A DNA stretch of 64,000 nucleotides from Antedon mediterranea (taxonomy: Eukaryota > Echinodermata > Crinoidea > Comatulida > Antedonidae): positions 15,601,001-15,665,000 of the forward strand of contig NC_092680.1 of the NCBI RefSeq assembly GCF_964355755.1. The letters run 5' to 3'. The translations under genes were made by a program, and so were the position numbers. The notes under the pieces were generated by a model, which was given only the letters and a program-made list of their open reading frames with translations, was not told the origin of the DNA and ran no database searches. Each line of letters opens with the position of its first letter. The stretch's first letter is position 1. This document shows, piece by piece, positions 53,266 through 59,200 of this stretch.

Positions 53266-56200
53266 ATGGGAAACTGTAGAACAACAGAAAAACAAAGGGA
53301 GCCAACTCATGGGCATTCAACTAATAAAACCAATAATGCTGATTCTGTGTTTGAAGGTTTTGTACCAACCCCAGTCAATACATTTCCAATGCCGCCAAGT
53401 AAGTTGTGTATAAATATGGCGAAATAGAAATGTCGTTAGAAATAATGAAGGAAGAATTGTAGATGTGAGGTATTCGTTCTATAGATCCGTTATATGTAGT
53501 GTTTGGACCTATTACCTCTCCTGTTGGGCTGGTAATGTTACCGGAGGGAATAAAGGACGCCTTGAAACTTTCATCCGTCGGGCTGGTAAAATGATTGGTC
53601 TGGAACTGCCTTCCTTTACCGATGTGCACCTAGAACACCTTCAGAAAGATTTCGAACGCATTGAGTCGGATGCCTCTCATCCTCTCCACAAAGTGATCAT
53701 AGACCAACTTAATCCAAGTGGTAGATTGAGGTTCCTCAGTGTGAAAACAAATCGATTTGCTAAATCCTTTATTCCCTCCGGTATCATCCAGTACAACAGG
53801 AAGTCAAGAAGATAATTTTATATTGTAATTTTTTAGATGTTTTTATATGAATGGTTTTATGCTATATTTGGTTTTATAGTGTTTTTTTGTTATTATGACG
53901 AGCAATGAATTTCCTTTTTGAGGATCAATAAAAGTTATCTTATCTTATCTTATCTTATCTTGTATTGTACCTTCAGTAATGTATCATTAGCGTTATCTTC
54001 ATCTTTATTTGAATTTTATGATAATGATAATGACTATAAACCGTAGGTCCGGTGTAAACACTTAGCTCATGTGCACTTTAAAGAACCTAGTAGATCTTTC
54101 GAGACGAGTAGGGATTACCCCGGAGAGGTTGCCCAGTAGAAATAAATAATAAACACACATAATAAAATCTGATGACCACTAGGAAACTAGAACTCTAGTA
54201 AAGACATTATTTAAAGCATAAATCATTTCCTATTTTGCAAAATGTCTAAATTTCTTTTAAAAAAAAATTAGCGGTCATTTCCGGAATTGACTTTGGAGCA
54301 ACCTGAAGATTTTAAAGTAGGGTCTATACGATTTTAATAATCACAAATAAGTATTTGAATAACATATAGAGCTACTCTCTTTGTAGTATTATCATACAGA
54401 GCATTGTATGACTATGATGCTAGGACAGAAGATGATATTTCCTTTAAGAAAGGCGATTTGATGGAAAGAATAAATAATAGGTATTCAGTTTTGTTCATTC
54501 AAAATGGTTTTTAATTATTAATGTATTGCTTGTTGAATAGAATTATTATAACTAATACCTAGAATACAGTTCTAGTACATTGTGTATGCAAGTCAGGCTC
54601 TATAGACTGATTTAATTTTTACAGGCTTTTATTGCCAATGCTTCTCAACAGTGAGATAACAACAGGACTCATTATTTCCTCTGAGACAATAATTTGTCTC
54701 AGCCTTAAATTAGGTATAGCGGTTGCCACTGTAAAACAATCATAATAATTATTATCATGTTGAAACTGTATGCACAGTGTGAGTAAGTCTACAGTACAAC
54801 AATGTCTTTGAATATCAATGGCAAGTTGGGATTCATGCATCTTAAAATATTTTTCCATCATAATAAATAATTCATTTAATTTTACTTTATTATTTACTTT
54901 TTCTTTAGTGATGGTGATTGGTGGCTAGCAAGATCGACAGTAACAAACAGAGAAGGATACATTCCTAGCAACTATATTGCGCCAGTAAATAGCATAGAGT
55001 CTGAAGAGTAAGTAGCCTAGCTTTTAAAATAATTTACCAATAAGATTTAGTACTAATAATAATAATATTTATTCGGTCATCAATGTAAAATTAACCAGGA
55101 ATGAGAATAGGCTAAAGCCCAAACAGATTCTGCACTCACTCCATACAATACAATCAGTTAAAGATAAAACCATATACAAGAAAAATACAAATAAATTATA
55201 CATAACATGAAATATAGTGTTTTGTTAGAGCAGCCTTAAATATTGAAATTGTTTGTGAATCTTTTATGTCATTTGGTATTTGCTTCCATAGTCTAGGAAA
55301 GGAAACAAATACAGAATTATGAAAAGTATTGCCTTTCGAATTCCAACGTAAAAGCCTACCCGGACATCTTTCACTAGTTTTAATATACTCATTGAAAGAA
55401 TGGGGACAGTAACCTTTATACTACTGTATATTCATAAATTAATTTGCAAGTAGAATAGAATATCAACTCTACTAAACTATCTTGAAAACAACTCTATGTA
55501 ATATTTATGAATATCAGAAACATCAATGTTTAGGCTAATATGAGTTAATTTCATGTTCACTCTGACCATATTTTTCTCCCATACAGTTAGTTATATCCAT
55601 TCAATTATAATTTAAACCATATTAATATTCTCGCCTAATGGAATTGATCACCATTTGTTTTGTCACTTTGCAGTTGGTATTTTGGAAAAGTTAGTCGAAA
55701 AGATGCAGAGAAACGGCTACTATTACCTGGTCTACCGCAAGGCACATTTATTATCCGAGACAATGTAGCAAGTCCAGGGAACTTCTCATTGTCAGCAAGG
55801 AGTTATGACGACACAGGGGAGGACGACGTTAAACATTATAAAATTCGAAAAATCCTGGACAAGGGAGGTTATTTCAGGGTGTCACGAAAGCTCAGACCAC
55901 GAAAGCTCAGACCCCCTAAGACCTAAGATCACGAAAGCTAAGACCCAACACCTAAGATTACAAATACTAAGATATACTACAGATTAAAAACAATACTTGT
56001 TTATCCATACATAATTTTAAACACAGTAGGTTTCATTTATTACCATAAATATAATTTAATACTACCGCAAAACATAGATAAACTCACATTATTTTCGCCC
56101 GTTGAGTAAATGTATATTTTTTCTTTACAACAAACAAACTTGACGGGTGTCACGAAAGCTCAGACCACGAAAGCTCAGACCCCCTAAGACCTAAGATCAC

Positions 56201-59200
56201 GAAAGCTAAGACCCAACACCTAAGATTACAAATACTAAGATATACTACAGCTTAAAAACAATACTTGTTTATCCATACATAATTTTAAACACAGTAGGTT
56301 TCATTTATTACCATAAATATAATTTAATACTACCGCAAAACATAGATAAACTCACATTATTTTCGCCCGTTGAGTAAATGTATATTTTTTCTTTACAACA
56401 AACAAACTTGACGGGTTGTTTGTTGGTATATATTTACTCCATTGTGTTGCTTCAGAGGATGTTTTTCTTACGCACCTGCCTTTCTTGTATTTTGACTCCA
56501 AATTTGTTGACTAACTTTATCCTGAACACCACACTTTAAAAATTAGGACTTATAAGTACTTTCAGAAGGAGAAACACATAACAAATAAATAAATCCTTTA
56601 AATAGATGATTTTACAGGCGTGTTTCTTTGTATACTGTAATGTATAACTCCTCGAGCTCCCCGCTCAATGTTTTTGTTTCTATGGAGCGCCAAAAGAGCA
56701 ACAATAATAGTACAAGTATAAAAACAGAAAGAAAACGAAACAAAAAAACTTTTAAGTTAAAATTTATTTGCCAGTATTTATTTCTTCGTACTTGCATGAT
56801 TATACTATTATCATTACAATTTTAATTTTACATTGTTCCATCCACACTGTAGATGGACTCCACAGAGTTTTCAGCCCTCTATATAATTTTTGCTCTTTTG
56901 ACGTTCCATAGAAACAAAAACATTGAACATGGCCCATGGGGTAGGCCTACTGTACTGTGTAGGCTAGTCATTTTGTGTGCGAGAAAAACGTCTGTAAAAT
57001 CATCAATTTAAAAATGTATTTGTTACTTTTTATGTGATTCTTTTTCATGAAAGTGCCAATTCTAAGGTGTGGTATTCAGAATAAATGTTGGGAGTTAAAA
57101 TACAAGGCAGGTGCGAAAGATAAATATTTGTAATCTTAGGTGTTGGGTCTTAGCTTTCGTGATCTTAGGTCTTAGGGGGTCTGAGCTTTCGTGGTCTGAG
57201 CTTTCGTGACACCCAAACTTGACGGGTTGTTTGTTGGTATATATTTACTCCATTGTGTTGCTTCAGAGGATGTTTTTCTTACGCACCTGCCTTTCTTGTA
57301 TTTTGACTCCAAATTTGTTGACTAACTTTATCCTGAACACCACACTTTAAAATTAGGACTTATAAGTACTTTCAGAAGGAGAAACACATAATAACAAATA
57401 AATAAATCCTTTAAATTGATGATTTTACATATGTGTTTCTTTGTATACTGTAATGTAACTCCTCGAGCTCCCACCATGCTCAATGTTTTTGTTTCCATGG
57501 AGCGCCAAAAGAGCAACAATAATAGTACAAGCATAAAAACAGAAAGAAAACGAAACAAAAAAACTTATCATGATTTTTAAATTAAAATTTATTTGCCAGT
57601 ATTTATTTCTTCGTACTTGCATGATTATACTATTATCATTACAATTTTCATTTTACATTGTTCCATCCACACTGTAGATGGACTCCACAGAGTTTTCAGC
57701 CCTCTATATAATTTTTGCTCTTTTGACGTTCCATAGAAACAAAAACATTGAACATGGGGTACGCCTACTGTAGTACTGTAGGCTAGTCATTTTGTGTGCG
57801 AGAAAAACGTCTGTAAAATCATCAATTTAAAAATGTATTTGTTACTTTTTATGTGATTCTTTTTCATGAAAGTGCCAATTCTAAGGTGTGGTATTCAGAA
57901 TAAATGTTGGGAGTTAAAATACAAGGCAGGTGCGAAAGATAAATATTTGTAATCTTAGGTGTTGGGTCTTAGCTTTCGTGATCTTAGGTCTTAGGGGGTC
58001 TGAGCTTTCGTGGTCTGAGCTTTCGTGACACCCGGTTATTTCATTGCGTCTAGAAGTCATTTTAGCACACTTAATGATCTGGTTGACCATTACCAACGTA
58101 AGTAGGGCTACAGTCTGCACCCAATAATGCACATACTGTAGCTTCACGATTGTACATTCAAACATATGGAATGGACTGAAAAAGAACATGGCAAAGACGG
58201 GTGTCACTAAACTTTTGACACCCACATCATAGTCATGCATTCAGTAGTATATTCTCCATATTTTTTTGCAATTTGCTGTATTACTTTTTTATTGGAATTA
58301 AAATTATTAAACAAGAAACCAGTTTCCAATGTGTCGAAGAAATTCAACGTTATTGTACCAGTAAAACTACATTCACATGTCATGACCAAAACATCAAAGG
58401 AAAGGTTAATTGAAGCTTGACCCCTGCTGAGGTTAACGTTAAAAAAAACTTCACTACTAGTCAATCTAAATGTTGTAATAGAAAAATAGCCCTTAGCAGC
58501 TTACTTACCAAAAAAATGTTCGTCTCTTTTTTTAAAAATGTCATTATACATTGAAACAATGACAAGTTACTTAATGAATGATTTACTTGTTGTTATGTTC
58601 AGAACAAGCTGACGGGTTGTGCTGCAGGCTAGGAGAACCAGTCCAGAAACAAAGTCCCAAAATATTAAGCCTAGGCAAGAATGCCTGGGAAATTCCAAGA
58701 GATTCATTACAACTGGAAAAAGTTCTTGGTGCTGGACAATTTGGTGAAGTCTGGAAAGGTAAAAGAAATATGTTTGTTGTAGGTTTCACCTTTGACCTAT
58801 GTGTGTCTTTGGTCTTGGGTTTTTGTTTACAAACTTACTTAAATCAGACTTTTTTTAATAGATTATTTTGTAGTTTTAATAGTTTTTGTAGAAAACAAAT
58901 TATGTTTTCACTAAATTTATAAAACGACAACATTAATTAAATTGATTTAAATTTAATTGATTAAATTCATGAACCAAAAACCCATTGCTTTAAATTAAAA
59001 ATGTTTCAGGTAATTTTTTGTCAAAGTGGATAACTATTATGTGACGTTAACATGGCATATTCATATATAATAAGTATATATATATATATATATAAATAAA
59101 TTTTAAAAAAAAGAAAAAACATATATACATATTCAACAATATAATTATTTTTCAGGAGATAATACATCTTTAAATAATTTATATTTTAGGACGTTGGATT

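What the first reader, a model, noticed from the sequence alone, without database searches (positions are those of the whole stretch)
55867..58043. Transposon inside the SH2-coding exon of a Src-family kinase, with exact target duplication
The exon reads correctly up to GGTTATTTCA, is interrupted by a 2,157-bp element with 90-bp terminal inverted repeats, and resumes after a second GGTTATTTCA with the expected SH2 sequence. Deleting element plus one duplication gives a 257-nt exon whose phase matches both neighbours. The insertion adds a stop within about 50 nt, and exon skipping also gives an immediate stop (GAA ACA AGC TGA). So this allele should be null unless the element is spliced out.
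Basis: partly seen in the sequence, partly recalled or inferred. Interest (0 to 1): 0.85.

Follow-up and report, generated by a model that had tools for sequence, protein, structure and literature searches.

The report
Nested transposons in dying Src duplicate
A coding exon of an animal Src-type kinase gene has been interrupted by a jumping element that later received a second copy of itself; the break is real, but the gene was already a fast-changing, probably catalytically dead spare of an intact Src gene elsewhere on the same chromosome, so this is ordinary gene decay.

Summary
2,157 bp (55877-58033) interrupt the SH2 exon between exact 10-bp duplications; removing the insert plus one duplication restores a 257-nt exon in phase. 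A paralogue 2.4 Mb away (C11:18.08 Mb) has the same exon uninterrupted.

Two corrections. (1) It is not one element but two nested copies of one non-autonomous family: outer copy (1,078 bp, 10-bp TSD) and inner copy (1,070 bp, 9-bp TSD AAACTTGAC). The genome holds 346 exact termini of this family; of 29 untruncated copies fetched, 26 have 10-bp and 2 have 9-bp TSDs. The 90-bp TIRs are built of a 15-bp repeat. This fits a Mutator/Foldback-type MITE, though no autonomous partner was found. (2) The gene is not a normal Src kinase being knocked out. It is a fast-evolving duplicate (43 versus 4 polarised amino-acid changes against the paralogue) with HRD->HCD and DFG->GF-. The insertion is young (outer copy at most 0.75% from its subfamily consensus, gene branch dS about 0.20), so those lesions very probably came first. 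The frame was nonetheless kept open until recently. A third copy lacking SH3/SH2 lies just outside the window.

Truncation after SH3 plus part of SH2 is the likely outcome; clean splicing-out would need a poor acceptor.

The parts
55674..55876 (+). 5' part of the SH2 exon (203 nt) of the Src-type gene, including the left TSD copy
   Evidence: acceptor tgcag|TTGG; 86% identical to intact exon of paralogue
55867..55876 (.). left 10-bp target-site duplication GGTTATTTCA of the outer element
55877..56144 (+). left 268 bp of the outer element copy; 90-bp TIR at 55877-55966; ends in the left 9-bp TSD of the inner copy
56136..56144 (.). left 9-bp TSD (AAACTTGAC) of the inner element
56145..57214 (+). 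inner element copy, complete, 1,070 bp, 90-bp TIRs 56145-56234 and 57125-57214
   Evidence: 1 substitution in 1,067 from its subfamily consensus
57215..57223 (.). right 9-bp TSD (AAACTTGAC) of the inner element
57224..58033 (+). right part of the outer element copy; 90-bp TIR at 57944-58033. Outer copy total 1,078 bp
   Evidence: 8 substitutions in 1,073 from its subfamily consensus
58034..58043 (.). right 10-bp TSD GGTTATTTCA of the outer element
58044..58097 (+). 3' part of the SH2 exon (54 nt), donor caac|gtaagt
53266..53398 (+). exon 1 coding part, MGNC start (Src-type N terminus)
54387..54480 (+). exon 2 (SH3)
54909..55007 (+). exon 3 (SH3 end)
58603..58758 (+). exon 5 (SH2-kinase linker, glycine loop)
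59190..59335 (+). exon 6 (VAIK lysine, alpha-C glutamate)
60339..60452 (+). exon 7 (kinase)
60769..61054 (+). exon 8 (kinase) with altered catalytic motifs HRD->HCD and DFG->GF-
61461..61657 (+). exon 9 (kinase C-lobe, tail tyrosine, stop)

Best explanation
The interval is a young double insertion of a non-autonomous, Mutator/Foldback-type DNA transposon family in the SH2 exon of a Src duplicate. A copy of the 1.08-kb family was pasted into the exon, making a 10-bp duplication (shown). Later a second copy of the same family was pasted into the first, making a 9-bp duplication (shown). The interrupted transcript should end 50 nt into the insert, giving at best a protein of SH4, SH3 and most of SH2 without a kinase domain, or be degraded (inferred). 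The gene was one of two extra copies of an intact Src gene that were already evolving under relaxed selection, with independent losses of catalytic motifs (shown from sequence; loss of activity inferred). The insertion is therefore a late step in the decay of a spare copy, not the loss of the animal's Src function.
For: TSDs, TIRs and nesting. Family-wide 9-10-bp TSDs (26 of 10 bp, 2 of 9 bp, among 29 untruncated fetched copies). 346 exact termini in the genome. Uninterrupted paralogous exon and collinear gene. Paralogue is a full Src (698 bits to PDB 2h8h). Lesions and 43 v 4 polarised changes, p = 3e-9. Branch estimates from pairwise values: W dN 0.069/dS 0.20, paralogue 0.026/0.24, third copy 0.069/0.22. 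Young insertion: outer 8/1,073 and inner 1/1,067 from subfamily consensus, TIRs identical within each copy. No stop elsewhere although neutral drift at dS 0.1 would give about 6 stops.
Against: No RNA data, so splicing of the insert is not excluded; one frame-restoring GT-AG pair exists with a donor in the TSD and a poor GAG acceptor in the right TIR. One haploid assembly, so fixation is unknown. The transposase that moves the family was not found. Timing of the kinase lesions rests on rate arguments.
Confidence: 0.87

Rival explanations
1. The insertion behaves as a new intron (introner-like): the donor comes from the TSD (GTTATTTC at 55868) and the acceptor from the right TIR (58019), giving an in-frame protein with five extra residues in the SH2 domain.
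For: This pair restores the frame without a stop (498 aa) and the donor scores within the range of the gene's real donors. Published introners recruit one splice site from the TSD (PMC9860276).
Against: The acceptor is a GAG site scoring 0.48, against 0.73-0.92 for the gene's real acceptors (crude scoring). Of the other fetched copies, none tested lay in a recognisable coding exon. Intron length and the insertion of a second copy suggest no constraint.
Confidence: 0.05
2. Assembly artefact: the double insert, or its nesting, is a misjoin of repeats.
For: The family is abundant and near-identical, which is where assemblies err.
Against: Both levels carry their own exact TSD; the two copies differ by 10 substitutions and several indels and belong to different subfamilies. 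A misjoin would not create a 9-bp and a 10-bp duplication at exact TIR ends.
Confidence: 0.03
3. The gene was an active, important kinase until the insertion, which is a recent (perhaps segregating) null with strong effect.
For: The reading frame, splice sites, SH4/SH3/SH2 and tail tyrosine are intact.
Against: DFG Asp and Gly lost, HRD Arg lost, 22 of 143 kinase positions invariant in paralogue, human Src and another family member changed, against none in the paralogue in the reciprocal test; insertion at most about 4% of the branch old.
Confidence: 0.06

Closest known systems
Tm1 Mutator/Foldback family of root-knot nematodes (PMC3169594)
   Same: About 1.08-kb non-autonomous copies, composite TIRs made of 13-15-bp tandem repeats, TSDs mostly 9 bp (8-10), no target consensus, nested insertion at one locus.
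   Different: Different TIR sequence, host not a nematode of that group as far as tested, TSDs here mostly 10 bp; no transposase-bearing member found here.
Mutator-like elements (MULEs), criteria of PMC3903597
   Same: Long near-identical TIRs, TSD in the 8-11-bp range.
   Different: No coding member with these TIRs found; MULE transposase genes in the genome show no matching TIR within 1.5 kb.
c-Src family kinases
   Same: MGNC start, SH3, SH2 with FIIRD arginine, kinase domain, tail tyrosine in the gene as encoded around the insertion; paralogue matches human Src end to end.
   Different: Window copy has HCD and GF- in place of HRD and DFG and an interrupted SH2 exon.
Introners (PMC9860276)
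   Same: Non-autonomous TIR/TSD elements that may land in exons.
   Different: No good splice sites; no sign of copies acting as introns.

Membership tests
Mutator-like (MULE) superfamily | TSD of 8-11 bp, mostly 9 | tested here: met
   26 copies with 10 bp and 2 with 9 bp among 29 untruncated fetched copies, plus the outer copy with 10 bp
Mutator-like (MULE) superfamily | long, nearly identical TIRs | tested here: met
   90-bp TIRs with 0-1 mismatches in nearly all copies
Mutator-like (MULE) superfamily | mobilised by a MuDR/MURA-type transposase sharing the TIRs | tested here: inconclusive
   36 MULE-domain matches in the genome; no matching TIR in the 20 fetched loci with 1.5-kb flanks; large TIR pairs examined were copies broken by other insertions
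Foldback-type elements | TIRs composed of short tandem repeats | tested here: met
   about 4 copies of a 15-bp unit CACGAAAGCTAAGAC at 55883-55945
Src family kinases | myristoylation-type MG-C start, SH3, SH2, kinase, tail tyrosine in that order | tested here: met
   (for the gene with the insert left out)
Active protein tyrosine kinases | HRD and DFG motifs | tested here: not met
   HCD and GF-; paralogue keeps both
Introners | copies spliced out as introns with sites at the TSD or element ends | tested here: inconclusive
   one weak frame-restoring pair in the window; no coding exon recognised at the other fetched copies tested; no RNA data

The most novel reading that the evidence does not exclude
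The window gene was a working Src-family pseudokinase (SH4-SH3-SH2 adaptor with a dead kinase domain) kept by selection, and the insert is removed from its RNA by a TSD donor and TIR acceptor, so a decaying duplicate gained an intron.
Probability: 0.04. Interest if true: 0.65.

Novelty: new member of a known kind. Interest (0 to 1): 0.3.

Why it matters
It is a clean, dated example of transposon self-nesting in a coding exon and of the late stage of duplicate-gene loss. The order can be read from one sequence: relaxed selection and catalytic lesions first, transposon last. The outer and inner copies also give two closely related TSD measurements for one family at one site. The neighbouring copies suggest that Src was duplicated more than once in this lineage and that two duplicates lost catalytic motifs independently, which would make Src-family pseudokinases testable in this animal.

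Tried and rejected
Looked for an autonomous partner among TIR pairs more than 1.5 kb apart (3.1, 3.2, 4.6, 9.1 kb): all were family copies broken by other insertions. Looked for TIRs with a different interior: three hits, two fetched, which were diverged family copies. Tested whether other fetched copies sit in coding exons: six open frames crossing the sites scanned, no Pfam match. Considered gene conversion between the nested copies because their ends are identical and their middles differ: rejected as needless, since they belong to two subfamilies differing in the middle. A first alignment of the copies without turning minus-strand loci gave a false deep split; redone. Tried to name the species from chromosome number and size: not settled. 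Empty-site 15-mer search found the paralogue and seven chance-like places, no second haplotype.

Full report
Observation. The SH2 exon starts at 55674, runs to GGTTATTTCA (55867-55876), is interrupted by 2,157 bp, and resumes after a second GGTTATTTCA (58034-58043) to a normal donor at 58097. The outer 90-bp arms of the insert are perfect inverted repeats. The insert adds a stop 50 nt inside it; skipping the exon also gives a stop.

It is two elements. Repeat analysis shows four, not two, copies of the TIR. The segment 56145-57214 is a complete 1,070-bp element with both TIRs, flanked by AAACTTGAC on both sides. The remainder, 55877-56144 plus 57224-58033, closes to a 1,078-bp element that aligns to the inner one along its whole length. 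So a first copy entered the exon and a second copy of the same family entered the first. The two copies belong to two subfamilies (about 1,080 and 1,067 bp) that differ in the middle.

The family. The window is G000:C11:15601001-15665000 of a 354-Mb genome of 18 contigs, 11 of which hold nearly all of it. The element is abundant: 346 exact 22-nt termini against 0 for the reversed control, with many full-length copies 95-100% identical. Among 30 fetched copies, one (L013) is truncated at its left end. Of the other 29, 26 have an exact 10-bp TSD, two have 9 bp and one has none. The TSDs show no strong consensus beyond A+T richness. The TIR contains about four copies of a 15-bp unit. TSD length and long TIRs meet published MULE criteria (8-11 bp; PMC3903597), and the composite TIR resembles the Mutator/Foldback family Tm1 (PMC3169594). 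No coding member was found, so membership rests on TSD and TIR only.

The gene. Comparison with a paralogue on the same contig (C11:18073137-18087226, minus strand) gives a collinear 9-exon gene with matching splice sites. The paralogue encodes 505 aa and matches human Src end to end (698 bits). Its SH2 exon reads AAGGAGGTTATTTCATTGC without interruption, which is the empty site in a paralogue. With the insert left out, the window gene reads 493 codons, 82% identical to the paralogue, with SH3, SH2 and kinase domains by Pfam.

The window copy was already degenerating. HRD is HCD, and DFG is GF- (Asp to Gly, Gly deleted, an Arg inserted further on). Polarised with human Src, 43 amino-acid differences arose on the window branch and 4 on the paralogue branch (p = 3e-9); with another family member as outgroup the counts are 27 and 5. 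Of 143 kinase positions invariant in the paralogue, Src and that member, the window copy differs at 22, the paralogue at none in the reciprocal test. A third copy starts about 4 kb beyond the window end (L065:4050-6626). It has an MGNC exon followed directly by the kinase exons, so it lacks SH3 and SH2, and has HRN and DVG in place of HRD and DFG. Three-way distances give approximate branch dN/dS of 0.35 for the window copy, 0.31 for the third copy and 0.11 for the paralogue (my arithmetic from the pairwise values).

Yet the frame was kept. A neutrally drifting copy would be expected to hold about 6 stops at dS 0.1 and about 10 at dS 0.2, and the window copy holds none outside the insert. It was therefore still coding, perhaps as an adaptor-type pseudokinase, until recently. 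Activity loss is inferred; a few kinases with GFG or without the RD arginine retain some activity (general knowledge, not tested here).

Order of events. The outer copy differs from its subfamily consensus by 8 substitutions in 1,073 and the inner copy by 1 in 1,067; the TIRs within each copy are identical. Against a window-branch dS of about 0.20, the insertion occupies at most about 4% of that branch. At that rate fewer than two of the 43 changes are expected after it, so the catalytic lesions very probably precede it.

Consequence. The likely product is truncated at residue 192 (SH3 intact, SH2 cut at profile position 64 of 77), or no product if the RNA is degraded. Of all GT-AG pairs tested, five restore an open frame. 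The best uses a donor in the TSD (55868) and a GAG acceptor in the right TIR (58019), and the acceptor is clearly weaker than the gene's own. This introner-like outcome (PMC9860276) is unlikely but not excluded.

Verdict. The insertion is real and the nesting is new information, but the event is an ordinary transposon insertion in a spare, already crippled Src duplicate.

Noticed in passing
L065:4050-6626 (G000:C11:15669050-15671626, just beyond the window end): Third Src copy in tandem: MGNC exon, then kinase exons directly, no SH3 or SH2; HRN and DVG instead of HRD and DFG, so catalytic motifs were lost independently of the window copy.
   Followed up: partly
window 58199-58223: Unique 25-bp near-palindrome GGGTGTCACTAAACTTTTGACACCC in the next intron whose ends equal the element's ends; one place in the genome with up to 2 mismatches. 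Possibly a remnant of an element with its interior lost.
   Followed up: partly
window 53414-53815: 133-codon open stretch in intron 1 of the kinase gene that looks by eye like the tail of a non-LTR retrotransposon reverse transcriptase; no Pfam match. A similar stretch at 5900-6241.
   Followed up: no
window 50007-51980: 657-codon single-exon open frame with Mab-21 domains (weak Pfam matches over the cut-off), upstream of the kinase gene.
   Followed up: no
window 21592-22125 and 11383-11721: Exons of a Parkin co-regulated (PACRG) gene and of an NHL-repeat protein.
   Followed up: no
L058:2471-7720: A family copy on C3 is split by a large insert with a 1,750-codon open frame that looks like an LTR retrotransposon (by eye, not tested).
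   Followed up: no
element interior, e.g. 56145-57214: The whole element is a rough palindrome: left interior 315-565 matches the right interior 738-983 inverted at about 66-70%, so a single strand could fold into one long hairpin.
   Followed up: partly
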